A stretch of DNA of 38,920 nt from Acidobacteriota bacterium (GTDB lineage Bacteria; Acidobacteriota; Thermoanaerobaculia; Thermoanaerobaculales; Thermoanaerobaculaceae): the NCBI GenBank assembly GCA_004298115.1, contig SCRJ01000113.1, positions 1 to 38,920 on the forward strand, given 5' to 3'. Positions 1 to 24,800 of this stretch are shown piece by piece; the stretch's first letter is position 1; each line of letters starts with the position of its first letter. The translations under genes and the position numbers were made by a program. The notes beneath the pieces are model-generated. The model saw nothing but the letters and a program-made list of their open reading frames with translations, was not told the origin of the DNA and made no database searches.

Positions 1-137
1 AAGATGCGCTCGTGCGCCTGGCCGCCCTCGCCGCCGCCAATCCCGAGATCGCCGAGTGCGACGTCAACCCTTTGCTCGTGCTGGACGAAGGCCGGGGCTG
101 CGTCGCCGTCGACGCCCGCATCCGCCTCACGCCGTGA
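1..137 (+). CDS. ADP-forming acyl-CoA synthetase, C-terminal fragment (partial)
   Basis: The frame starting at base 3 is open from the window edge to a TGA at 135-137 and gives about 44 residues. It contains ECDVNPLLV followed by a glycine-containing turn and VAVDARIRL. This is the usual end of the ATP-grasp subunit of ADP-forming acetate/acyl-CoA ligases and succinyl-CoA-synthetase-like enzymes, where an acidic residue, then NPL, then a VDARI strand close the domain. These enzymes interconvert acyl-CoA, ADP and phosphate with the acid, CoA and ATP in the cytoplasm. Only the tail is present, so the exact substrate and fusion state cannot be read. The gene converges on folK, whose stop is 23 bases away. 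The family is fairly sure; the substrate is unknown. Confidence 0.7.
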   Translation, partial: DALVRLAALAAANPEIAECDVNPLLVLDEGRGCVAVDARIRLTP

Positions 138-159
138 TCGCAGCCCCGGCGCGCCGCCG

Positions 160-666
160 CTATCGCGCGGGCGCGGTTGGAAACGGGCCGATCCGTTCGC
201 AACGCTGGACCAGGATTGCGGGACGGGCGGCCAGCTCGGGGAGGGTGCGGTGGAGGCGGGGGTGGCGCCAGCCGGGCGCCGCCTCGGCGGCCGGCGCGAG
301 GGCAAAGCGGCGTTCATCCAGGCGCGGGTGCGGCAGCGTCAGCACGATCGACTCGATGACGAGACCGGGCGCGAGGAGCAGATCGAGGTCGAGGGTGCGC
401 GGGCCCCAGCGCTCCTCGCGGGTGCGGTCGCGCCCGGCGGCGGTCTCCAGCCGCTGGCAGAGCGCCAGGAGCTCCGCCGGATGGCGGTCGGTTTCCACGA
501 GCACAGCGGCGTTGAGGTAGTCGGGCTGGGGTGGGCCTTGCGGGGCGCTGCGCCAGACGCCCGAGCGCGCCAGGACACGCAGGCCGCGGGCGAGGTCGTC
601 GAGGGCGCGCGAGAACGCCCGCGCCACGTCGCCGCGGTTGCCGCCGAGGCCGATCACGAGTTGCAC
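160..666 (-). CDS. folK: 2-amino-4-hydroxy-6-hydroxymethyldihydropteridine diphosphokinase
   Basis: FolK transfers diphosphate from ATP to 6-hydroxymethyl-7,8-dihydropterin in folate synthesis, in the cytoplasm. The 168-residue protein begins VQLVIGLGGNRGDV, the N-terminal strand and glycine turn of the family. It carries the signature RWGPRTLDLDLLL with the two metal-binding aspartates, then LPHPRLDERRFALAP, which lines the pterin site. The length fits the family (about 160 residues). I chose the GTG at 664-666 because a GGGGAG motif lies about six bases upstream and the homologous sequence begins there; the reading frame continues upstream to 762 without resemblance to FolK. No folate gene neighbours it, so it appears to be a lone gene, divergent from the coiled-coil gene at 729. 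Confidence 0.93.
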   Translation of the reverse strand: MQLVIGLGGNRGDVARAFSRALDDLARGLRVLARSGVWRSAPQGPPQPDYLNAAVLVETDRHPAELLALCQRLETAAGRDRTREERWGPRTLDLDLLLAPGLVIESIVLTLPHPRLDERRFALAPAAEAAPGWRHPRLHRTLPELAARPAILVQRCERIGPFPTAPAR

Positions 667-13544: not shown

Positions 13545-14957
13545 ATGAAGAAGACCATCATCCTCGCGTTGGCCCTCGCCCTCGTCGGCGGCGCGGCTTA
13601 CGCCAACTTCTGCGCGCGGGACACCGTTCCCGCCGCCACGCTGCTCGTCCCCTACATCGTCGTCGATGCGGACGCCAGCGGCAACCCGATTTCGTCCGGC
13701 TACACCACGCTGACCGTGGTGACGAACGTCTCGAGCGCGAAGCAGCTCATCCACGTCACCGTGTGGAACGCCGTTTCGAGCGCCGTCGTCGACTTCGACG
13801 AGGTCCTGTCGGGCTACGACGTGTGGTCGATCAACTGGCGCGACCTCGTCACCGGCGACTTCGAGAACTTCGACACGAGCGCCAAGAGCGGCGGCTTCTG
13901 GAGCGGCACCGTTGGAACTGCTCCGTCGCCGTTCGGCCCGACCACCAACACGATGGTCCCGCCGGCTCTGACGAACCCGCAGGACACCGACTACGCCACG
14001 CCCGCGATGACCAACTGCGGCATGCCGTGGGGCAACCTTTCCCAGTACAAGGGCATCATCGTCAGCAAGCTGCAGGCGCCCCTGATCGCTTGGCCGAATC
14101 AGGACACCAACTGCGACACCAAGACCGAGATCACCGCCTGGCCCGGCTGGCTGTCGAGCGTGACCGCATCGCCGTTGTTCTTCTACGCGACGATCGACAC
14201 CGTCACCGCTTGCAACGCGTTGTTCCCGAGCAGCGTTGACTACTGGAACGCGAACGGCAACCTCGGTTACAACACGCGCAACAACGTCCTCACCGGCTAC
14301 GACTTCTACCTGAACTTCTCGCAGAACTACTCCGAGTCGCTGCCGACCGTCAACATCGAGGCGTACGCCGGCTACACCGGCACCGGCTTCTACAGCAAGT
14401 ACCGCAACCAGGTCGGCGTCAACGTGACGCAGGACGACCGCGAGCCCCTGGGCACCGCGTACGCGTTCAACTACTTCAACTCGCTCGGCGTGACCACCAG
14501 TGTGGCGGTGTGGAAGAACTACTCCGAGTTCGACACCATCAACGACAACGTCCTCGCCTGCCGGCCGTACGTGTACTACGCGTGGGACGAGAACGAGCAG
14601 TCGAAGAGCCGCACGACCCAGGCCTGCCCGTCGGGCCTCTGCTTCGGGAACCCCGAGCCGAACGTGTTCCCGTTCGAGACCCAGAGCGTCCCGGTCACTT
14701 CGACCAACTTCAACGCCCTGATGAGCGGCAACGGCTGGATGCTGATCGTGTTCGATCCGTCCGTTCCGAACCTTCAGCAGGCCGAGCCGTACCTGCAGGC
14801 GTACGTGTTCGCGAAGTACAACTACGGCGCGTACTCGACCTCGGTCGAGGCGACCACGATGGGGAACTTCTGGTGCGCCGCTCCCCAGGTGCTGCCGACC
14901 CTCAACACCAACGCCGGAACTGGCCTTATGAGCCCGTACGGGGTCCTGTTCGAGTAA
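13545..14957 (+). CDS. Secreted protein of unknown family, probably highly expressed
   Basis: I do not recognise the family. The 470-residue protein has a clean signal peptide (MKKTIILALALALVGGAAYA, cut before NFCARD). The mature chain is rich in Asn, Thr, Ser, Tyr and Trp, with beta-sandwich-like strands, and has eight cysteines (for example in FCARD, TNCGMPW and ACPSGLCFG), an even number that could form disulfides. It has no obvious anchor. The gene has its own consensus promoter, the strongest SD in the window and a textbook terminator 24 bases after the stop. Codon choice is less GC-extreme than in its neighbours. Together these suggest an abundant surface or extracellular protein, possibly structural; this is inference from expression signals, not from homology. 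Confidence 0.8.
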   Translation: MKKTIILALALALVGGAAYANFCARDTVPAATLLVPYIVVDADASGNPISSGYTTLTVVTNVSSAKQLIHVTVWNAVSSAVVDFDEVLSGYDVWSINWRDLVTGDFENFDTSAKSGGFWSGTVGTAPSPFGPTTNTMVPPALTNPQDTDYATPAMTNCGMPWGNLSQYKGIIVSKLQAPLIAWPNQDTNCDTKTEITAWPGWLSSVTASPLFFYATIDTVTACNALFPSSVDYWNANGNLGYNTRNNVLTGYDFYLNFSQNYSESLPTVNIEAYAGYTGTGFYSKYRNQVGVNVTQDDREPLGTAYAFNYFNSLGVTTSVAVWKNYSEFDTINDNVLACRPYVYYAWDENEQSKSRTTQACPSGLCFGNPEPNVFPFETQSVPVTSTNFNALMSGNGWMLIVFDPSVPNLQQAEPYLQAYVFAKYNYGAYSTSVEATTMGNFWCAAPQVLPTLNTNAGTGLMSPYGVLFE

Positions 14958-15011: not shown

Positions 15012-15083
15012 GTGCGCTGCAACACAGGCGCCTGCTGGACAAACCCAAGTCGTTGGCGTAAAGTCAGTTGTCGGAGGTCGACG

Positions 15084-18000
15084 ATGCCACGAACCGTTGT
15101 CAAGACGCGATGCTCACTTGCGACCGCAGCGGCGGCCGGGTTGCTGGCCCTGCTCGGTGCACGCGGCGCCGCGGCGCAGTGCTACAACGGGGACTCGTAC
15201 ATCTACGACCTGTGCGCCACCGAGACCAGCGGCACGATCTACGACACCAGGGGGGCGTTGCACGGCTTCGAGGTGAACGCCGAGGGGCACGAGTTCCTGA
15301 TCGCGACCCTCAAGGCCGACCTCACCATCTGGGACGTCACGAACCTGGCCCCCGGCAGCCTCACCCCGAGGGTGGCCTCGTCGCTGCACATCCCCTGGGA
15401 CGGCGTCAAGCTTGGAGCGGACAGCCACTGGCCGTACACCGACCACCTGCCGAATATCGCGACGCTCGCGAACTACCCGTACGCCCTCGCCTCGATGTAC
15501 GACTTCGGCTGGGACTTCCTCCACGTCGGCGCCACCTCGCAGGGGTTCCTCGGGAACGGCTACAAGCCGGCCGCGCAGCTCACCAACGGCACGTACGTCA
15601 GCGCGGCGCTGTTCGAGGTCGGCGGCATCGCCTACGCGGCCGGCCAGCAGCTCGACCAGGCGAGCATCGCGGCCAACGACAAGTCGGTCCGCATCTACAC
15701 GCTGGGCAGCTACAACAACCCCTCGGCGCCCCCGGGCTCGGCGACGATGGGCCAGGGCGTCCGGGTGCCCGCCGGCTCGGCGGGCGACGGGGCGTACGCC
15801 GGCTTTCCCCTCGCGCTCGGGAGCAATCAGCTCTGGGCCTACTACGACTCCACGAGCGGCAAGACGTTCCTGTTCGTCCGCTACATCACCGGCGGGGGGC
15901 TCCTGATCGTGGACGTGAGCACCCCCAGCCAGCCGCAGCCCGTCACCTGGATTCAGAGCGACTCCACGCTGTTCGCCGGCAACTGGGCGGTGGACTCGGA
16001 CAACCAGACGCTCTGGGTGGGGGACCCGACCCATCCGATCATCCACCCCTACCAGATCGTTGTGGGCAGCGTGCTCGGCCTGGCGACGGTGACGCTGAAC
16101 GCCGGGACCCCGTTCCCCTACTGGGGCGACGGGACGGCCAGCGCGTACGGGACCGTGATCAGCGCGCGGGGCGGCCTCCTCGTCGCCGCCTCCGGGTACA
16201 AGATCGGCTACCTGAGCCTGCTGGGCGGCGGGACGCCGACGCCGATGGCGAAGCAGACGCCGTACACCGACCTCTCGGGGCGGATCTGCGCCAACTCCGC
16301 GTACAACGAGAGCGTCAACGGCATCACCGCGTTCAGGATCGCGGGCAACTACTTCGCCTGCCGCTCGATGATCGTCTCCGCCGACATCGTCGGCATCAAC
16401 AACGCCTGCATGTCCACCACGCCGGTGCCGGGGTTCTCGATCTCCGGCGGCGACGCCGCGGCCGCCTGCAACCTCACCGCGGCCGAGAACGGGTTCCCGG
16501 GCGACACTCTCACCATCACCGACCAGTCCGGCGGGGTGTGGAGCACGGGCGGCTCGCTCGACATCCAGAGCCCGCCGGGCTCCACGATCGGGACGTCGTA
16601 CGGCGGCTCGTTCCCGGCGACGATCACGCAGCACGGCTCGGTGCAGTGGCCCTCCTCGCCGAGCACGCCGCCCGGCGACTTCACCGTCGTCGAGACGATC
16701 TCGGGCGGCACCCCGAACCAGGCGAGCAAGACCCTCACCCTCTGCGCCGCCCCGAAGGCGACGCTGACCGTGAACGTGGGCGGGACCGCCTGCGTCAACC
16801 CCGCGACCGGGTGCAACGGCCTGGTCAACGACGGTGTGGTCCTCGGCAACACCGCCCAGGGGCACCCGGCGGTCGCCGTCGGGCCAACGTACTTCTACCA
16901 GGCGGCGAGCGACCCCTCGGCGTCGCAGGGCTCGTCGTTCTCGCTCGCGGCGAAGACGACGTACACCGTCGGCGTCGTCGTCCCGTACTCGTTTACCGCG
17001 CCGAACGACCCGAACTGCTCCAACGCGCTCTTCGGCGCCAACGTGCCCGCGACCCCGTACCACGCCTGCTCGGTCGGCACGATCGTCGCCGGGTACGGCG
17101 CCGCGAGCTTCGAGGTCCAGCAGCCCGCCGGCGCGAAGGTCGCCGACGCCTTGCAGGCGGGGAACGTGCTCGTGGACCAGCCGGTGACCCTCAAGTTCAC
17201 CGGCCGCGTCGCGACCGGCGACACCCCGAACTTCACCTGGACCGGCATCGGGATGGCGGGGCAGCCGGCGTGCGTCTACTCCGGCGCGCCGAGCTACACC
17301 GGCACCCTGTGCACGATCCCGGCCGGCGCGCTCACCGTCGGCCCGGCGCAGAGCTGGGGCCTGACGATGGCCGTCTGCTCCGGCGGCGGGGGGTTGGGGA
17401 GCGCCTGCACGACGCTCGCCGACACGGTCACCTCGCCGCCGGTGAGCGTGACCCCGAGCGCGTACTCGTTCGCGTTCACGGTCTCGCCGGCCACGACCAA
17501 CATCGGCGGCACGGTCTCGATCACGCTCACCAACGCCATCCCGCCGCCGGGGGGGTTCACCTCGCTGACGTTCAACCTCGGCGGCACGACGTGCGACCTC
17601 GTCACCCAGAAGTCGGTGCAGTGCGGCAGCATCTTCGGCGGCAACCAGTGCCAGGTGACCGGGTCGCCGATCCTGACGTACACCTACGGCGCGAGCGAGG
17701 CGGGGAAGGTGGAGACGATCACCGCGACCGCCTTGTACGGCTCCGGCCAGACGCTCACCTCGCCCTCGACGGGGCAGGTGGCCGTCACGACCAGCGGCGC
17801 CTGCCCGTGCCCGAGCGTCACCACCACGGTGAACGGCCCGAACACGGCGCCGGTCAACCAGACCGTGCAGTTCTCGGCGAGCGCCAGCTCGACCGCCGCG
17901 ATCACTGGCTACAGCTGGACGTTCGGCGACGGCGGCAGCGCGACCGGGCAGAGCGCGAGCCACACCTACACCAGCAGCGGGCTGTACACGGTCCGGGTGA

Positions 18001-21000
18001 CGGCGACGAACTCGTGCGGCCAGACCGGCAGCGCGTCCTACTCGATCCAGGTCGGCGGCGGAGGCGACGGCAACCTGACGATCACCCCGAGCCCGGCGAC
18101 CGTCAACCCGGGCAGCCCGGTGACGTTCACGTTCTCGCCGGGGGTGAGCCGGAGCGGCGACCAGGTCACGATCACCTTCGGGGACGGCACGCAGGCGCAA
18201 GTGAGCTACATCGCGGCGTTCTGCAGCGTGGCGAGCCCGTGCAACATGGTCACCCACCCCTACTCGACCCCGGCGAGGTACACCGTCACGGCGAGCGGGA
18301 CGGTGAGCGGCGTTGCCGTGGGTGGCTCGACCTCGGTGACGGTTCTCTCCAGCTGTGCCCTCCCGTCGGCCCCGGCCGCCTCGTTCACCTTCACGCCGGC
18401 CGCGCCGCGCGTCGGCCAGGTCGTGGGCTTCGCCGACACCTCGTCGGGGACCCCGACCTCCTGGGCGTGGGCGTTCGGCGGCCCCGGCGTGGCCGGCACC
18501 TCGCTGGGAATGGTCCACACCGCCGCCACCGGCAACCTCGCGATCACGCCGAACCCGGGCACCGCGGCGGTCGGGCAGACCGTCATCTTCACCTTCTCTC
18601 CGGCGCTGACGGCAATCAACGATTCCCTCAGTTTCAACTTCGGCGACGGCACGACGACACCGATCTCGTACAACCCGAGCCTGTGCGGCGGCGGGTGCAG
18701 CGCGATCTCGCACGCGTACTCCGCCGCCGGCACGTACACCGTGTCGGCCAGCGGGGCGGCGGGCGGCGTGTCGGTGTCGGGGAGCAGCTCGGTCACGGTC
18801 AGCGGCGCGGGCGGGGGCAGCCTCACCATCACGCCGAGCCCGGCCAACGCGGCGATCGGCCAGACCGTCACGATTGCTTTCTCGCCGGCCGTCGGCCAGA
18901 CCGGCGACTCCGTCGTCATCACCTTCGGCGACGGCACCTCGCAGACGGTGTCGTTCCCGGGGTGTCAGACCAGCGGTGGCTGCAACGTCGCCAGCCACGC
19001 CTACGCGGAGGCCAACACCTTCATCGTGACCGGCAACGGCACGGCGGGGGGCGCCGGCGTGACCGGCAGCGCCACGGTCGTCGTCTCCGCCGGCGGCAGC
19101 GGCGGGAGCTCGACCGCGCAGAACCCGAGCTACACGTTCACCGCCCCGGGCACCTACACCGTGACGCTGACCGCCACGAACTGCAAGGGTTCGACCCAGG
19201 CGTCGCAGCAGGTGACCGTGCTGCCGACCTGCGACCAGAAGGCCCCTCCGACGCCGGACTTCACCTGGCCCACCGGCGCGGTGGCCGGGTTCCCGGAGCA
19301 GCAGCAGCCGTACGTCGGACAGCAGATCACGCTCACCGACGCCTCGACCGGCAGCCCGACGTCGTGGCACTGGTACGACTTCAACGAGCTGGCGATGGAC
19401 CGGACCGTGATGACGCCGACGTTCACCTTCACCTGGCCCACCAACCTGCCCGCAGGCGCCAAGAACCTGCGCATGACCGCCGCTAACTGCTTCGGCGCCT
19501 CGGCGGAGGTCATGAAGACCATGACGATCTACCCCGACGTGCGCCACGTCGTCGCCGACTTCTCCTGGAGCGACGGCACGCTGGCGACCGGCGCGCCGGT
19601 CACGCTCACGGCCGCCACCGGCGACGCGTACGGGAACCCCGACACCTTCACTTGGACGTTCGACGACGGCAGCACGCAAACCGGCCCGTCGGTGACTCAC
19701 ACCTATACCTGTGCCGGGTCGCACCGGGTGACGCTGGCCGCGTCGCGCAGCTACTCCGCCGCGGTTCCTCCGGGGACGGCCTCGCACACCCTCACGGTGA
19801 CCGGCAAGCAGTGCGGGCCGGATGCGGTCATGACGGTGGACGCCGCCAAGACCAACGGTCTCAACGGCACCACCTGGCTCACCGACGTGCGCATCTTCAA
19901 CCCCTCGTCCCAGCCCTCGCAGATCACGGTGCAGCTCCTGCCGGTCGGTTGGAACAACAGCTCGCCGCCGAGCAAGGTCAATACGCTGTCGCCGCATGCC
20001 ACGTGGGTGCTCAACGACGTCCTGGCGTGGGCGCAGAGCGGGGGGGTCGTCGGCACCGACGTCAAGAAGGCGGCGCTGCGCATCGTGTACGACAACCCCG
20101 AGAACGTGGCGCCGATCCTGGTCAGCGAGACCTACACGACGGCGCCCTCCGGCGGCGGCACCTACGGCCAGCTCACGCCGGGGATCGAGGTGGTGCCGAA
20201 CACCACGCCACCCATTCTGTGGATCACCGGAGTCCGCAACAACGGCACCACGAGCGGGTTCCGGACGAACTACAGCCTGCTCAACCTGCGCGACACGGCC
20301 GTCTCGAACCTGCAGTTCACGCTTCTTGATCCCACCGGGAAGTCGCTCGCCACCCAATCGGTGAACCTCGGGGCGTTCGAGTACCGGCAGGACTCGCTCG
20401 CCAACCTGTTCGGCGGCGCGTCCGCCGCGGTCAGCTCCGACCCGCTCGCCGTCAAGGTGGTGGTGCCGGCCGACTCCGACGTGCAGGCGTACGCCTCGGT
20501 GGTGGACAACCTCACCGGCGACCCGGTGCTGGTCCCGGCGGTGCCGCCGCCGTCGGTCCCGATCTTCATCCCCGCGGTGGCGTACACGCCGGGCGTCAAC
20601 GGGACGGTGTGGCGCAGCGACCTGCAGCTCACCAACCCAGACGCGGCGCCGCACACCTGGGCCGTCACCTACACGCCGGGCGGGCAGAACCCGCTGCCGA
20701 TCGTCACGCAGAAGCCCACCGTTGCTGCGCAGAGCACCGTGCGCTACGACGACCTGCTGTCGTGGCTGTACGGCAACCGGCTGACCGATGCCGACAAGAC
20801 CAGCGGCGTGGTCGAGATCACGCCCGCCGACGGGAGCGGCGTGTACCCGATCGTGCAGGCGCGCTCGTTCAACCAGACCGGCAACGGCACGTTCGGCCAG
20901 AACATCCCGCCGATCACGCCGGACATGGGGGTCGCGGCCGGGCAGGGCAAGCGCCTGCTGCTCACCGGGATGTCGAGCGAGGATATCGCCCGCACCAACC

Positions 21001-21320
21001 TCGGCTTCGTGAACCTCTCTGCTACGTCTGGCGTCAACTTCTCGGTGATGTTCTACGACCAAGGTGGCAACGTGCTCAACCCCGTCGATGACCAGCAGAA
21101 CCCGATCCCGTACACGTTCTCGCTCGGCGTCGGCGGGTGGGACCAGGACAAGCTGGAGAACCGGTTCAGGAACGTCTTCAAGACCGGGCTCCCGGCGAAC
21201 CTGGCCGCCATTTCGGCGGTGATCCAGGTGACGGACGGCGGCCCCGGGACGGTGTACGCCACCGTGATCGACAACCTGACCGGCGACCCCAACTTCATCC
21301 TGGCGCAGCCCGCCCCGTAA
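15084..21320 (+). CDS. Giant secreted multi-PKD protein with propeller and duplicated C-terminal module
   Basis: The 2078-residue protein starts with a signal peptide (ATAAAAGLLALLGARGAAAQ). Residues about 60-450 are LVIVD/propeller-like strands (FEVNAEGHEFLIATLKADL, LTIWDVTNL). Ig-like strands follow to about 910. PKD1 (916-989) is canonical, with YSWTFGDGG and HTYTSSGLYTVRVTATN. Three related PKD-like repeats start at residues 997, 1151 and 1246. A second PKD is split: its first half is at about 1094-1133 and its second at about 1339-1379. Two more PKDs cover about 1385-1575. The tail (1578-2078) is a duplicated module, each copy closing with NLTGDP. There is no LPXTG motif or membrane anchor. 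The ATG at 15084 follows GGAGG by six bases. It is likely a cell-surface or extracellular binding protein; ligand unknown. Confidence 0.88.
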   Translation: MPRTVVKTRCSLATAAAAGLLALLGARGAAAQCYNGDSYIYDLCATETSGTIYDTRGALHGFEVNAEGHEFLIATLKADLTIWDVTNLAPGSLTPRVASSLHIPWDGVKLGADSHWPYTDHLPNIATLANYPYALASMYDFGWDFLHVGATSQGFLGNGYKPAAQLTNGTYVSAALFEVGGIAYAAGQQLDQASIAANDKSVRIYTLGSYNNPSAPPGSATMGQGVRVPAGSAGDGAYAGFPLALGSNQLWAYYDSTSGKTFLFVRYITGGGLLIVDVSTPSQPQPVTWIQSDSTLFAGNWAVDSDNQTLWVGDPTHPIIHPYQIVVGSVLGLATVTLNAGTPFPYWGDGTASAYGTVISARGGLLVAASGYKIGYLSLLGGGTPTPMAKQTPYTDLSGRICANSAYNESVNGITAFRIAGNYFACRSMIVSADIVGINNACMSTTPVPGFSISGGDAAAACNLTAAENGFPGDTLTITDQSGGVWSTGGSLDIQSPPGSTIGTSYGGSFPATITQHGSVQWPSSPSTPPGDFTVVETISGGTPNQASKTLTLCAAPKATLTVNVGGTACVNPATGCNGLVNDGVVLGNTAQGHPAVAVGPTYFYQAASDPSASQGSSFSLAAKTTYTVGVVVPYSFTAPNDPNCSNALFGANVPATPYHACSVGTIVAGYGAASFEVQQPAGAKVADALQAGNVLVDQPVTLKFTGRVATGDTPNFTWTGIGMAGQPACVYSGAPSYTGTLCTIPAGALTVGPAQSWGLTMAVCSGGGGLGSACTTLADTVTSPPVSVTPSAYSFAFTVSPATTNIGGTVSITLTNAIPPPGGFTSLTFNLGGTTCDLVTQKSVQCGSIFGGNQCQVTGSPILTYTYGASEAGKVETITATALYGSGQTLTSPSTGQVAVTTSGACPCPSVTTTVNGPNTAPVNQTVQFSASASSTAAITGYSWTFGDGGSATGQSASHTYTSSGLYTVRVTATNSCGQTGSASYSIQVGGGGDGNLTITPSPATVNPGSPVTFTFSPGVSRSGDQVTITFGDGTQAQVSYIAAFCSVASPCNMVTHPYSTPARYTVTASGTVSGVAVGGSTSVTVLSSCALPSAPAASFTFTPAAPRVGQVVGFADTSSGTPTSWAWAFGGPGVAGTSLGMVHTAATGNLAITPNPGTAAVGQTVIFTFSPALTAINDSLSFNFGDGTTTPISYNPSLCGGGCSAISHAYSAAGTYTVSASGAAGGVSVSGSSSVTVSGAGGGSLTITPSPANAAIGQTVTIAFSPAVGQTGDSVVITFGDGTSQTVSFPGCQTSGGCNVASHAYAEANTFIVTGNGTAGGAGVTGSATVVVSAGGSGGSSTAQNPSYTFTAPGTYTVTLTATNCKGSTQASQQVTVLPTCDQKAPPTPDFTWPTGAVAGFPEQQQPYVGQQITLTDASTGSPTSWHWYDFNELAMDRTVMTPTFTFTWPTNLPAGAKNLRMTAANCFGASAEVMKTMTIYPDVRHVVADFSWSDGTLATGAPVTLTAATGDAYGNPDTFTWTFDDGSTQTGPSVTHTYTCAGSHRVTLAASRSYSAAVPPGTASHTLTVTGKQCGPDAVMTVDAAKTNGLNGTTWLTDVRIFNPSSQPSQITVQLLPVGWNNSSPPSKVNTLSPHATWVLNDVLAWAQSGGVVGTDVKKAALRIVYDNPENVAPILVSETYTTAPSGGGTYGQLTPGIEVVPNTTPPILWITGVRNNGTTSGFRTNYSLLNLRDTAVSNLQFTLLDPTGKSLATQSVNLGAFEYRQDSLANLFGGASAAVSSDPLAVKVVVPADSDVQAYASVVDNLTGDPVLVPAVPPPSVPIFIPAVAYTPGVNGTVWRSDLQLTNPDAAPHTWAVTYTPGGQNPLPIVTQKPTVAAQSTVRYDDLLSWLYGNRLTDADKTSGVVEITPADGSGVYPIVQARSFNQTGNGTFGQNIPPITPDMGVAAGQGKRLLLTGMSSEDIARTNLGFVNLSATSGVNFSVMFYDQGGNVLNPVDDQQNPIPYTFSLGVGGWDQDKLENRFRNVFKTGLPANLAAISAVIQVTDGGPGTVYATVIDNLTGDPNFILAQPAP
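18072..19100 (+). repeat. Three PKD-like coding repeats, two nested inside another PKD
   Basis: Units start at about 18072, 18534 and 18819. They read N/S-L-x-I-TP-x-P, then FTFSP or IAFSP, then a TFGDGT-type turn, then HxYxxxxxYTVxASG-like ends. The first unit stands between PKD1 and PKD2. The second and third interrupt PKD2 between SWAWAFGG (ending about 18482) and STAQNPSYTFTAPGTYTV (from about 19110). Confidence 0.75.
19815..21317 (+). repeat. Tandem duplicated C-terminal module
   Basis: Two modules of about 240-255 residues follow each other (residues about 1578-1820 and 1826-2078). Each has a first half with NGTxWxxDLxxxNP and a second half with RTNYSLLNL or RTNLGFVNL, and ends YASVVDNLTGDP or YATVIDNLTGDP. 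The halves themselves look like related beta-sandwiches, giving an A-B-A-B arrangement. Confidence 0.7.
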
Positions 21321-21449: not shown

Positions 21450-22682
21450 GTGGAGAGAGAGACCGCGCCGACGGCGACGGACACCCCCCCCAGCGTCGAG
21501 ATCCGCGGTTTGGCCAAGCGCTACCTCCTTTTCGGTCGGCGCCGCGACCGCGCTCTCGCGCTGCTCGGGCGCACCGGCGGCCTGCGCAGCGTGACGGCAC
21601 TCGAGGGGATCGACCTCGAGGTCCGGCCCGGCGAGGCGGTCGGGGTGGTCGGCGAGAACGGCTCCGGCAAGAGCACGCTCCTGCGCCTCGTGGCCGGGAT
21701 CTCGACCCCGGACGCCGGGACGATCCGCGTCGCTCAGCCGGTGGCGCCGATCCTCGAGCTGGGGCTCGGCTTCCACCCCGAGTTCACCGGCCGCGAGAAC
21801 GCGCTCCTCTACGGCTCCCTACTCGGCATTCCCGCGCCGGCAATGGCGGAGCGTCTCGACGACGTGCTGGCGTTCGCGGAGCTCGGGGAGTTCGTGGACC
21901 GGCCGCTGCGGACCTACTCCTCGGGAATGGCGGCCCGCCTGGCGTTCGCAGTCGCCACGAACGTTGACCCGCGGGTGCTGGTGGTGGACGAGGCGCTCGC
22001 GGTGGGCGACGGAGCGTTCCAGAAGAAGTGCGTGGACCGCATGGTGCGGTTCAAGGAGGAGGGCCGCACCGTCCTGTTTTGCTCGCACGCGATGTACCTC
22101 GTCACCAGCTTTTGCGAGCGGGCGGTATGGCTGCACCAGGGGCGGATCCGGAACGAGGGCCCGTCGCAGGGCGTCGTGGAGGAATACGAGAGCTACCTGA
22201 TGCAGCGCGAGAAACGGCGCCTGGCGGGTGTCGCCGAGACGCCGTGGAGGCCGGCGGTGGTCGGAGGGCGGCGCGGCAGGATCGCGGACGTGCGCGTGCT
22301 CGGCCTCGACGGCTCGCCGGCGGAGAGGATGGGCCCGGGGGAGGGGTTCGAGGTGGTGCTCGCGGTCGAGAGCCTGGACCGGTCGTCCGCGTTCCATGTC
22401 GCCGTCGCGATCGATTCCCAGGACGGGCGCTGCATCTTTGCCGCCACTACCCACTTCGACGGGGTCGCACCGCTGGCCGGCGCGACGGAGTACGAAGTTC
22501 GCCTGCGCATCCCGGCGTTGCCGCTGGCGTCGGGCACGTTCGCGGTCTCGGGGTTCCTGTTCGACGAGAACGGCCTGCACACCTACGACCAGGTCGTGGC
22601 GCCGGCCGCGCTCCGCGTCGAGAGGGCGCGCTGGACGCCGTCGCTGCTCGAGCTCGACCACGAATGGATCGTGTCGGGGTGA
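21450..22682 (+). CDS. Polysaccharide ABC exporter ATPase with C-terminal glycan-binding domain (Wzt-like)
   Basis: The 410-residue protein powers glycan export with a Wzm-type permease. The nucleotide-binding domain has Walker A GENGSGKS at residues 68-75, the Wzt-type segment LELGLGFHPEFTGRENALL, signature YSSGM at 156-160, and Walker B LVVDEALAVGD near 175-185. After the YESYLM linker (about residue 250) a beta-rich Wzt C-terminal domain runs to the end (FEVVLAVES, FHVAVAI, FAVSGFLFDENG). In characterised homologues this domain binds the modified end of the finished chain. The start is the GTG at 21450; no strong SD is visible. The permease partner is the gene at 10742. The downstream GT gene overlaps by GTGA at 22679-22682. 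Confidence 0.9.
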   Translation: MERETAPTATDTPPSVEIRGLAKRYLLFGRRRDRALALLGRTGGLRSVTALEGIDLEVRPGEAVGVVGENGSGKSTLLRLVAGISTPDAGTIRVAQPVAPILELGLGFHPEFTGRENALLYGSLLGIPAPAMAERLDDVLAFAELGEFVDRPLRTYSSGMAARLAFAVATNVDPRVLVVDEALAVGDGAFQKKCVDRMVRFKEEGRTVLFCSHAMYLVTSFCERAVWLHQGRIRNEGPSQGVVEEYESYLMQREKRRLAGVAETPWRPAVVGGRRGRIADVRVLGLDGSPAERMGPGEGFEVVLAVESLDRSSAFHVAVAIDSQDGRCIFAATTHFDGVAPLAGATEYEVRLRIPALPLASGTFAVSGFLFDENGLHTYDQVVAPAALRVERARWTPSLLELDHEWIVSG

Positions 22683-23710
22683 CGCGACGGCCCCTCGCGA
22701 TCGTCTACCTCCTCGAGGACACCGCGCTTTTCGGTGGGGTGAAGATCGTTCTGCACCAGGCGGAGTTGATGGCGCGGCGCGGGCACCGCGTGACGGTGGT
22801 GAGCAAGGGCGAGCGGCCGGCGTGGTTCCCGCTCAGCACCCAGTTCCTGCGTGTGCCGAGCTTCGACCCCGGACTGCTTCCCGCCGCCGACGTGACCGTC
22901 GCCACGTTCTGGACCACGATCGCGGCCGCGGCGGCGGTGCGAACCGGGCAGGGCGTGCACTACTGCCAGGGGTTCGAGGCGAGTTACACCCACAACGCTG
23001 CCGAGCACCCGCTGATCCTCGAGGCGTACCAGACGCAGATCCCGTTTTTCGCCTTGTCCCCTCACCTCGGGGTGCTGGTGGCGGAGAGGTTCCGCCGGCG
23101 GGGCCGCGTCGTGCCGCCGGCGCTGGCGCCGTATTGGCACTCGGCCTGGCGCAGCGGCCCGGGGCGGCCGCCGCGCGTCGTCATCGCCAACCCGTTCGAG
23201 ATCGACTGGAAAGGTGTGGCTACCGGTCTCGAAGCGATCCGCCTGCTGCGCGGGCAAGGCCTTCCGTGCCGCCTGATCCGGCTCTCGCAGTGGCCGCTTT
23301 GCGATGCCGAGCGCGCGGTGCTCGTGCCGGACGAGTTCCACCACGGACTCAAACCGCAGGAGGTGGCGAGGCTTGTGCGCGGCGTGGATCTCATGCTCGC
23401 CCCGTCGTGGGAACAGGAAGGGTTCGGCCTGCCGGTGCTGGAGGCAATGGCGTGCGGGGTGCCCGTGGTGGCGTCGGAGATCCCGGCGTTTTGCGGTTTC
23501 GCAGGCGCCGCCGCGGTGCTCGTGCCGTTCGACCGCCCCGAACGTTTTGCTGCCGCTGCGGCCGAACTCCTGAGTGACCGCCGGCGGTGGCGCACCGTGC
23601 GGCGCCGCCAACTCGAGGCCGCCCGGGCGTTTTTTGAGGCGCGGGTCGCGGCGATCGCCGAGGACGCACTGTACTGGATTGCGGAAGGGCGCTGGAGGAA
23701 CCGGCCGTGA
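22679..23710 (+). CDS. Glycosyltransferase family 4-like protein
   Basis: The 343-residue protein has the GT-B layout of family 4. Its N-terminal half carries FGGVKIVLHQAELMARRGH, the glycine-rich acceptor-side motif. The C-terminal half has APSWEQEGFGLPVLEAMACG and VPVVASEIPAF, the EGFGLPxLEAMA signature that binds the sugar nucleotide. It should transfer a sugar from NDP-sugar or similar during cytoplasmic assembly of the exported glycan. The GTG start overlaps the ATPase stop by four bases, so it is coupled to the exporter. The sugar and linkage cannot be predicted. Confidence 0.87.
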   Translation: MTRRPLAIVYLLEDTALFGGVKIVLHQAELMARRGHRVTVVSKGERPAWFPLSTQFLRVPSFDPGLLPAADVTVATFWTTIAAAAAVRTGQGVHYCQGFEASYTHNAAEHPLILEAYQTQIPFFALSPHLGVLVAERFRRRGRVVPPALAPYWHSAWRSGPGRPPRVVIANPFEIDWKGVATGLEAIRLLRGQGLPCRLIRLSQWPLCDAERAVLVPDEFHHGLKPQEVARLVRGVDLMLAPSWEQEGFGLPVLEAMACGVPVVASEIPAFCGFAGAAAVLVPFDRPERFAAAAAELLSDRRRWRTVRRRQLEAARAFFEARVAAIAEDALYWIAEGRWRNRP

Positions 23711-23747
23711 GGATGGCCAGCTCTCCTCGACGTCGCGACGCCGACCG

Positions 23748-24800
23748 ATGAGCGCCGAGGTTTCGCTCGTGCTCGTTGCATGCCGCTCGTCGGCGGTGGC
23801 GCCCGTCGCCGTGGCGGGTTTCCGGGCCGAGGCCGCGGTGCTGGGCGTCTCGAGCGAGGTCGTAATCGTGGATCACAGCGACGACGAGGGTGAGCAGACG
23901 CGGCTGCAGGCGCTGGCGCCTGAGCGGTTGCTCGCCCAGCCCAACCGCGGCTATGCGGCCGGGATCAACGTCGGCGTCGCGGCCAGTTCGGGGCACACGG
24001 TCCTCGTCGGCAACCCCGACATCGCGTTCGAGCCAGGGTCGGTCGCCGCGCTGCTGACCGCGCTCGACGGCGGTTGGGACGTCGTCGGGCCGCAGTTCAC
24101 GCTCGCCGGCTGGCTGTTTCCGCCCGCCGACCTGCAGACGCCCGGCGAGCAGCTGCGACGCTGGCTCGCCGGACGCTCTCCGGCACTCTGGCGGCGCGAG
24201 CTGCGCCGGGAGTTGGCGCGCTGGCGCGCACTATGGGATGCGTCGGAGCCGGTGGCATTGCCGCTGCTCTCGGGCGCGCTGCTCGCGTTCCGGCGCGGGG
24301 CGTCCGAACGGGTCGGGCCGTGGGACGAGGGGTACTTCCTCTACTTCGAGGAGACCGATTGGCTGCGCCGCGCGGCCGCGGCCGGGCTGCGGCTGGCGCA
24401 GGTGCCGCGCGCGCGGGTCGAGCACAGCTGGGGCCACGCGGCCGACCCGGAGGCGACCGGCGAGCAGTTCGCGCGCTCCCGCCGTCGTTTCCTCGCGAGG
24501 CACCACGGCTGGCGGGGGCGCCTCGCGGCCCGGTTCGTGGGGGCACGCTCGCCGCTGCGCCCGTCGCCGCTCCCCGCGGGGGCGGAGGCGCTGCCGCGGG
24601 GCCGGCTGCAGTGGCTGCTGTCGCCGACGGCGCTCGGGGTCCCGGCGGCGGGGTCCTCGGGGTCCGCGCAGGAGCTCTCGGGAGCGTTGCGTGGCGTCTC
24701 AGCGGCGCGGGGAAACCGCGGACGCTTCCTCGTCCTCGCGCTCGAGCCCAGCTCCGGGCGGCTCGCCGGTGTGTGGTCGTGGGAGGTGGGCGGTGGATGA
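23748..24800 (+). CDS. Glycosyltransferase family 2-like protein
   Basis: The 350-residue protein has a GT-A domain in residues about 1-245: VSLVLVACRSS, SSEVVIVDHSDD, NRGYAAGINVG (a rhamnosyltransferase-like segment), VLVGNPDIAFEPG (in place of DXD) and LLSGALLAFRR with GYFLYFEETDWLRRA. The EETD residue pattern holds the catalytic base in the family. The C-terminal 100 residues are Arg/Pro-rich and unassigned. The start is the ATG at 23748; no earlier start fits the frame. It lies 37 bases after the GT4 gene and overlaps the following GNAT-like gene by eight bases. It is likely part of the same glycan assembly set. Confidence 0.85.
   Translation: MSAEVSLVLVACRSSAVAPVAVAGFRAEAAVLGVSSEVVIVDHSDDEGEQTRLQALAPERLLAQPNRGYAAGINVGVAASSGHTVLVGNPDIAFEPGSVAALLTALDGGWDVVGPQFTLAGWLFPPADLQTPGEQLRRWLAGRSPALWRRELRRELARWRALWDASEPVALPLLSGALLAFRRGASERVGPWDEGYFLYFEETDWLRRAAAAGLRLAQVPRARVEHSWGHAADPEATGEQFARSRRRFLARHHGWRGRLAARFVGARSPLRPSPLPAGAEALPRGRLQWLLSPTALGVPAAGSSGSAQELSGALRGVSAARGNRGRFLVLALEPSSGRLAGVWSWEVGGG

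What the first reader, a model, noticed from the sequence alone, without database searches (positions are those of the whole stretch)
18360..19220. PKD domain split by two nested PKD-like repeats
The first half of a PKD ends at SWAWAFGG and the missing second half (STAQNPSYTF, then TAPGTYTVTLTATN) appears about 205 residues later. Between them lie two copies of a repeat that also occurs once just before. Joining the halves restores an ordinary PKD. This looks like insertion of repeat units into a loop of another domain, a route for growing surface proteins.
Basis: seen in the sequence. Interest (0 to 1): 0.6.

Follow-up and report, generated by a model that had tools for sequence, protein, structure and literature searches.

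The report
PKD domain interrupted by nested PKDs
In a large, probably secreted protein of uncultured Acidobacteria-type bacteria, one small beta-sandwich (PKD) domain is cut open in a loop and two complete domains of the same kind sit inside it; close relatives carry either three inside or none, so this is a real, old insertion which suggests that such proteins can grow from inside a domain as well as end to end.

Summary
In ORF 15012-21320(+), half A of a PKD (18354-18482) and half B (19101-19232) match complementary parts of Pfam PKD_4 (positions 3-42 and 44-83 of 85). Between them lie a 17-residue linker and two whole PKD-like units (R2, R3); a third copy, R1, lies just upstream. Of 17 genomes searched in the taxonomic family, 3 carry the nested form (2, 2 and 3 units), 6 carry the same PKD uninterrupted, 3 have a related protein without it and 5 gave no orthologue. 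R1-R3 are only 66-69% identical in DNA and the nesting recurs in three assemblies, so misassembly is very unlikely. AlphaFold2 models made with and without uninterrupted relatives both match single PKD crystal structures across both halves (1l0q, Z 13.8 and 12.6). Additions: the nested stretch groups the three species together while the C-terminus and RpoB do not, so the gene is a recombination mosaic; one species shows later copying inside the nest. Domain insertion is common and known; unusual here is a PKD-in-PKD tandem array more than twice its host's size. New variant of a known kind. Function and donor remain inferred.

The parts
15012..21320 (+). ORF of 2,102 residues that holds the feature (GTG start as listed; an ATG at 15084 is a likelier start)
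   Evidence: choice of start is my reading
18072..18344 (+). R1, complete PKD-like unit upstream of the split domain
   Evidence: PF00801 35.7 bits, cut-off 23.5; bounds
18354..18482 (+). half A of the host PKD
   Evidence: PKD_4 positions 3-42; aligned to uninterrupted relatives
18483..18533 (+). 17-residue linker, disordered in the model, present in the 3 nested species
   Evidence: pLDDT under 50 for model residues 46-61; alignment
18534..18800 (+). R2, first nested PKD-like unit
   Evidence: PF00801 38.5 bits; eight strands
18819..19085 (+). R3, second nested PKD-like unit
   Evidence: PF00801 19.3 bits, under the cut-off 23.5; eight strands
19101..19232 (+). half B of the host PKD
   Evidence: PKD_4 positions 44-83, 39.6 bits
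19233..19541 (+). next PKD-like domain, after which the C-terminal history begins to differ
   Evidence: no Pfam match alone but 38.8 bits to the HMM of uninterrupted PKDs and 72.5 bits to the iterated one; segment identities

Best explanation
A large, probably secreted or surface protein has a stalk of PKD domains. In an ancestor shared by the N-terminal parts of three species, one or more R-type PKD units were inserted in frame into the loop after strand C (the SWAWxFG strand) of the host PKD that follows R1. SHOWN: the halves are complementary, the inserted units are complete, the frame is open in three species, relatives have the empty state, copy number is 2, 2 and 3. PREDICTED by model: the host closes across the insert into an ordinary PKD sandwich while each inserted unit folds on its own, joined by a disordered 17-residue linker on one side and a short glycine-rich linker on the other. 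INFERRED: the units came from copying of R1 or a near relative, the nest grew by copying in place (clear only in one species), and the inserted units stand out as a side arm rather than lengthening the stalk. The upstream part that carries the nest was exchanged by recombination relative to the C-terminus.
For: Complementary profile halves; 114.0 bits for A+B against 60.5 and 58.9 alone. Uninterrupted relatives G003, G005, G013, G014, G015 and G012; nested relatives G004 with 2 units and G001 with 3. Model from 7 rows: pLDDT 81.3, host strands 13-16, 25-30, 38-46 and 261-263, 268-278, 281-292, linker 46-61 under pLDDT 50; 1l0q_A Z 13.8, rmsd 1.6, 84 residues, model range 5..295 onto chain 301..386. 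Control model from the three nested rows only: pLDDT 74.9, 1l0q_A Z 12.6, rmsd 1.8, 84 residues, range 5..295. Nested rows form one clade on R1+A+B (93/93, 92% of 200 bootstrap trees) and on the N-terminal part (82/98). G001's R3 and R4 are 77% identical and pair in the unit tree (93/89); a group of G000 R1, G001 R1, G001 R2 and G004 R2 has 94/91.
Against: pTM is only 0.40 and 0.38; no pairwise error or coordinates were available, and the fold listing prints only the first and last aligned residue, so closure of the host is inferred from 84 residues aligned to an 86-residue stretch. Half A alone is weak in Pfam (13.2 bits, cut-off 27) and R3 is below the PKD cut-off. The unit tree is mostly unresolved (2 of 14 inner branches starred; the nested label needs 4 changes, about as clustered as chance: 74 of 500 shuffles as low), so neither the donor nor a single origin of the units is shown. 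The linker's origin test was unclear. AlphaFold2 has seen many PKD domains, so closing the halves may partly be recall. The nested state is patchy on the species (RpoB) tree, which needs recombination or repeated gain or loss.
Confidence: 0.88

Rival explanations
1. Assembly artefact: repeat copies were joined in the wrong order, so the split PKD is not real.
For: The genome is a draft in 203 contigs, and R units are repeats.
Against: R1, R2 and R3 share 66-69% DNA identity and no word longer than 15 bases; the same nesting with its linker is found in G004 and G001, two other assemblies.
Confidence: 0.02
2. The halves are leftovers that no longer fold together: R2 and R3 are the working domains and A and B are degenerating linkers.
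For: A+B of the nested species tends to score lower than the uninterrupted domains: 100.6-120.9 bits against 88.1-147.0 in 6 leave-one-out models. The D of FGDG is missing in all three nested rows.
Against: Both halves keep 50-72% identity to relatives; their strands are modelled with pLDDT mostly 80-93, and both models align to single PKDs over both halves.
Confidence: 0.08
3. The empty state is derived: the nest was present early and was lost cleanly in G003 and G005.
For: On the C-terminal and RpoB trees the nested species are scattered, so a gain followed by two losses fits those trees.
Against: G003 and G005 differ from the nested species over the whole N-terminal and middle region, not only at the insert, and the outgroups G012, G013, G014, G015 are uninterrupted. 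Exchange of the upstream part explains this with one gain.
Confidence: 0.1
4. The units were taken from another gene (for example the short proteins made of one R unit and the C-terminal module) rather than copied from R1.
For: Single R units occur in short proteins of the same genome (G000 C172) and of several relatives, and the unit tree does not place most nested units with R1.
Against: The one C172 unit tested does not group with the nested units but with G005 R1 (87/88), while some R2 units group with R1 units (94/91).
Confidence: 0.3

Closest known systems
Domain insertion (A1-B-A2 architecture), surveyed in PMC13114784 (abstract, passages and first part of section 2.2 read)
   Same: One domain's sequence is interrupted by complete domains, and relatives show the host without them.
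   Different: Insert is an array of two or three domains of the host's own family and more than twice the host's size; the survey reports inserts smaller than hosts in 77.0% of events and with close ends. Its main text does not contain the words PKD or immunoglobulin.
PKD domain (Pfam PF00801 / PF18911), solved in 1l0q and in ColG collagenase (4aqo)
   Same: Host halves together and the inserted units have the PKD sequence and predicted fold.
   Different: Host is discontinuous; its loop after strand C holds about 209 residues.
CnaA/CnaB Ig-like adhesin domains with insertions in loops (PMC12617251, passages)
   Same: Ig-like sandwiches of bacterial surface proteins that tolerate inserted domains in loops.
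   Different: There the inserts are described as usually isopeptide or adhesion domains; here they are PKD units with a further copy next to the host.
Lipin/Pah split immunoglobulin-like domain (PMC7066176, abstract)
   Same: An Ig-like domain made of two separated sequence regions, with relatives in which they are adjacent.
   Different: Eukaryotic enzyme; the intervening region is not an array of the same fold as far as the abstract says.

Membership tests
PKD domain (host, halves A+B) | Sequence match to the PKD profile over its whole length | tested here: met
   In two pieces: PKD_4 3-42 (half A, 13.2 bits, under the cut-off alone) and 44-83 (half B, 39.6 bits); A+B 114.0 bits to the HMM of uninterrupted relatives
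PKD domain (host, halves A+B) | PKD beta-sandwich fold | tested here: met
   In prediction only: 1l0q_A Z 13.8 and 12.6 over 84 residues spanning both halves
PKD domain (R2) | Match above Pfam's cut-off | tested here: met
   PF00801 38.5 bits, cut-off 23.5
PKD domain (R3) | Match above Pfam's cut-off | tested here: inconclusive
   PF00801 19.3 bits, cut-off 23.5, over nearly the whole profile; 47% identical to R1 and R2
Domain insertion (A1-B-A2) | Two complementary host pieces around a complete domain | tested here: met
Domain insertion (A1-B-A2) | Relatives with the uninterrupted host | tested here: met
   6 of 17 genomes of the taxonomic family
Domain insertion (A1-B-A2) | Host pieces form one folded unit in an experimental structure | not testable with these tools
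   prediction only
Domain insertion, trends of the survey PMC13114784 | Insert smaller than host (a trend, 77.0% of events, not a requirement) | tested here: not met
   The whole array exceeds the host: 209 residues against 87 for A+B; each single unit (89) is about as long as the host
Domain insertion, trends of the survey PMC13114784 | Insert's ends close together | not tested
   no coordinates available; that PKD ends lie far apart is recalled

The most novel reading that the evidence does not exclude
Surface proteins can grow by nesting: a tandem array of PKD domains, of a kind whose two ends lie far apart and which should make a poor insert, was placed and later enlarged inside the loop of another PKD, giving a branched side arm instead of a longer stalk, and the nested cassette is swapped between species by recombination.
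Probability: 0.3. Interest if true: 0.55.

Novelty: new variant of a known kind. Interest (0 to 1): 0.4.

Why it matters
Repeat-rich bacterial surface proteins are usually thought to grow by tandem duplication end to end (general knowledge). Here relatives with 0, 2 and 3 nested units exist, a natural series with which to test whether a beta-sandwich tolerates a tandem array in a loop, how it folds, and whether nested growth makes branches. It also shows a trap for annotation: profile searches see two partial PKDs where there is one split domain. A 2026 survey found inserts usually smaller than hosts and with close ends (PMC13114784); this array is larger than its host.

Tried and rejected
Assembly error: rejected, because three assemblies show the nesting and R1-R3 share only 66-69% DNA identity with no common word over 15 bases. 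No reads were available to check depth.

Half A completed by an R unit (strand exchange or a shifted register): rejected on score, 60.3-69.8 bits against 114.0.

Degenerate leftover halves: not favoured, but some relaxation is not excluded (see rivals).

Origin of the 17-residue linker (tail of an R unit, or a copied host loop): inconclusive. For the three linkers together 32 of 500 shuffles (R tails) and 26 of 500 (PKD loops) scored as high; for the window's own linker 470 and 329 of 500.

Other split PKDs: a scan of the 196 loci held then (many overlapping; 2,428 ORFs) for half-PKD pairs flagged 14 ORFs, all from G001 or G004; the window's own case was missed by the thresholds, so the scan is not exhaustive. 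A PF18911 search of 37 genomes of the order listed only part of its matches and could not show splits. A class-wide search (148 genomes, 25 with a match) listed no genome beyond G000, G001 and G004 with a match joining half A to the nested units. No match in plasmids.

Literature: searches returned 0 papers; some searches returned some, and none of the titles, abstract starts or passages I saw describes a PKD inside a PKD. One hit (PMC11823257) uses PKD for pyocin knob; another (PMC11345257) has a PKD next to an interrupted enzyme domain. Only open-licence papers were searched, so absence from print is not shown.

Full report
WHAT IS THERE. The window's ORF 15012-21320(+) codes for 2,102 residues from GTG; an ATG at 15084 (residue 25) starts a stretch that reads like a signal peptide (my reading, not tested). 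Pfam finds 6 PKD stretches (PF00801, 162.5 bits for the whole protein; PF18911 142.9) and no other family above its cut-off; NCBIfam finds nothing above its cut-offs. In the flagged region the order is: R1 18072-18344; half A 18354-18482; linker 18483-18533; R2 18534-18800; six-residue spacer; R3 18819-19085; short glycine-rich spacer; half B 19101-19232; next PKD-like domain from 19233.

HALVES. Half A matches PKD_4 positions 3-42 and half B 44-83 of 85. R1 and R2 reach PF00801's cut-off (35.7 and 38.5 bits, cut-off 23.5); R3 does not (19.3). The uninterrupted relative in G003 scores 57.2 (PKD_4, cut-off 27). With an HMM from 6 uninterrupted relatives, A+B of G000, G001 and G004 score 114.0, 118.3 and 104.7 bits, single halves 51.6-63.0, the 17 R units 3.6-19.7, three other PKDs of the same protein 18.6-38.8, the best of 200 shuffles 8.0.

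RELATIVES. In 17 genomes of the taxonomic family: nested in 3 (G000 with 2 units, G004 with 2, G001 with 3); the same PKD uninterrupted in 6 (G003, G005, G013, G014, G015; G012, whose contig starts inside the PKD but covers the site); a related protein with other domains in its place in 3 (G009, G010, G011); no orthologue recognised in 5 (G002, G006, G007, G008, G016), of which G006 and G008 are 84% and 74% complete. Empty sites read like FGDGAPPLIPGHSSSQQNP (G003) against FGG-linker-R2-R3-GGSSTAQNP in the window; G015's loop differs (FIKEGLNLGSRTERNP). G013 has a second copy (C82) in which leucine-rich-repeat-like sequence follows R1.

STRUCTURE. Window residues 1113-1407 were modelled twice: with 7 rows, nested and uninterrupted (A2; pLDDT 81.3, pTM 0.40), and with the 3 nested rows only, as a control against the alignment itself suggesting closure (A3; pLDDT 74.9, pTM 0.38). 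Both show three strands in half A, three in half B, seven or eight in each unit, and a disordered linker. The best solved matches are PKD domains aligned from one end of the model to the other: 1l0q_A Z 13.8 (rmsd 1.6, 84 residues, range 5..295) and 12.6 (rmsd 1.8); ColG PKD 4aqo Z 13.1 and 12.1. As the chain stretch is 86 residues long and the halves together are about 87, these alignments should consist mainly of the two halves (inference; the listing prints ends only). Foldseek alone lists matches to chains of several Ig or FnIII domains instead.

HISTORY. On R1+A+B (8 rows) the nested rows are one clade (93/93; 92% of 200 bootstrap trees); on the N-terminal part (7 rows; long branches for G013 and G015; G004 only 21% filled) also, 82/98. 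On the C-terminal part (9 rows) they are not: G004 pairs with G005 and G000 with G003, and holding the nested rows together is rejected (p-AU 1.1e-6; the trimming rule failed for 2 of the 9 rows, G015 and G003c, which went in untrimmed). RpoB (16 rows; G013 on a very long branch; G003, G004 and G006 partial) gives the same pairs, (G004,G005) and (G000,(G002,G003)). Conversely, on R1+A+B a pair G000+G003 is rejected (p 0.0008) and G004+G005 marginally (p 0.041). These groups were chosen after seeing the trees, so the p-values flatter. Segment by segment, by bit score G000 is closest to G004 or G001 from about residue 580 to 1510 (G001's sequence is missing for part of this) and to G003 from 1511 on, while G003 and G005 are closest to each other over the N-terminal part, a FnIII-like stretch and R1. 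So two N-terminal forms sit on one C-terminal base, with the joint after the split PKD. The outgroup G013 shares the window's middle region but is uninterrupted, which points to gain rather than loss of the nest (parsimony). The upstream 470-residue gene lies next to this gene in G000, G001, G003, G009 and G015 (positions), which supports orthology.

UNITS. R1, R2 and R3 are 47% identical in protein to each other; G001's R3 and R4 are 77% identical, a later copying inside the nest. The unit tree is mostly unresolved, so 'R1 was the donor' is a preference, not a result.

HOW IT WORKS. Most likely a secreted stalk protein whose host PKD still folds, with two or three extra PKD units held out from a loop. 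In PKD and other Ig-like sandwiches the two ends lie at opposite poles (recalled). A 2026 survey of 48,551 insertions reports inserts smaller than hosts in 77.0% of events and ends close together (median 14.3 against 29.8 angstroms) (PMC13114784; abstract, passages and the first part of section 2.2 read). This insert (209 residues between the halves, host of 87) departs from the size trend, and the disordered linker may be what lets the chain return to the loop (inference).

COMPARISON. Domain insertion is common: 20% of multidomain proteins in that survey, with 65.8% of events between different homology groups, hence about a third within one. CnaA and CnaB folds are described as tolerating insertions in loops (PMC12617251, passages). 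Lipin/Pah has an Ig-like domain made of two separated regions (PMC7066176, abstract); Plasmodium Pf41 has an intra-domain insertion (PMC4587554, search listing only). The ten paper searches showed no description of PKD in PKD, which is weak evidence of absence.

VERDICT. Real, well supported, of moderate interest: a clean natural series of nested and empty states of a known evolutionary device in an unusual setting.

Noticed in passing
window 15012-21320 and L065, L066, L067, L068: The gene is a mosaic: its C-terminal part follows the RpoB tree, its N-terminal and middle parts do not; two alternative N-terminal forms exist in the genus.
   Followed up: partly
L072 (G013:C82): A second copy in G013 keeps R1 but continues into leucine-rich-repeat-like sequence in place of the PKD: another domain swap near the same site.
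   Followed up: no
L005 (G000:C172) and short ORFs of about 370-480 residues in several relatives: Short proteins made of one R unit followed by the C-terminal module of the big protein: possible donors of R units.
   Followed up: partly
L070 (G003:C119): A third variant in G003: the C-terminal base with an unrelated, repeat-like N-terminus.
   Followed up: no
window 13545-14957: A 470-residue upstream gene without Pfam or NCBIfam match that keeps its place next to the big gene in several relatives.
   Followed up: partly
window 19812-21320: C-terminal module of about 500 residues, conserved across the family, without a Pfam match above cut-off.
   Followed up: no
window 21450-24800: Downstream lie a Wzt-like ABC transporter ATPase and glycosyltransferase-like genes, as in polysaccharide export loci.
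   Followed up: no
L066 (G005:C79), protein residues about 869-894: An unusually long run of glycine in front of R1 in G005.
   Followed up: no
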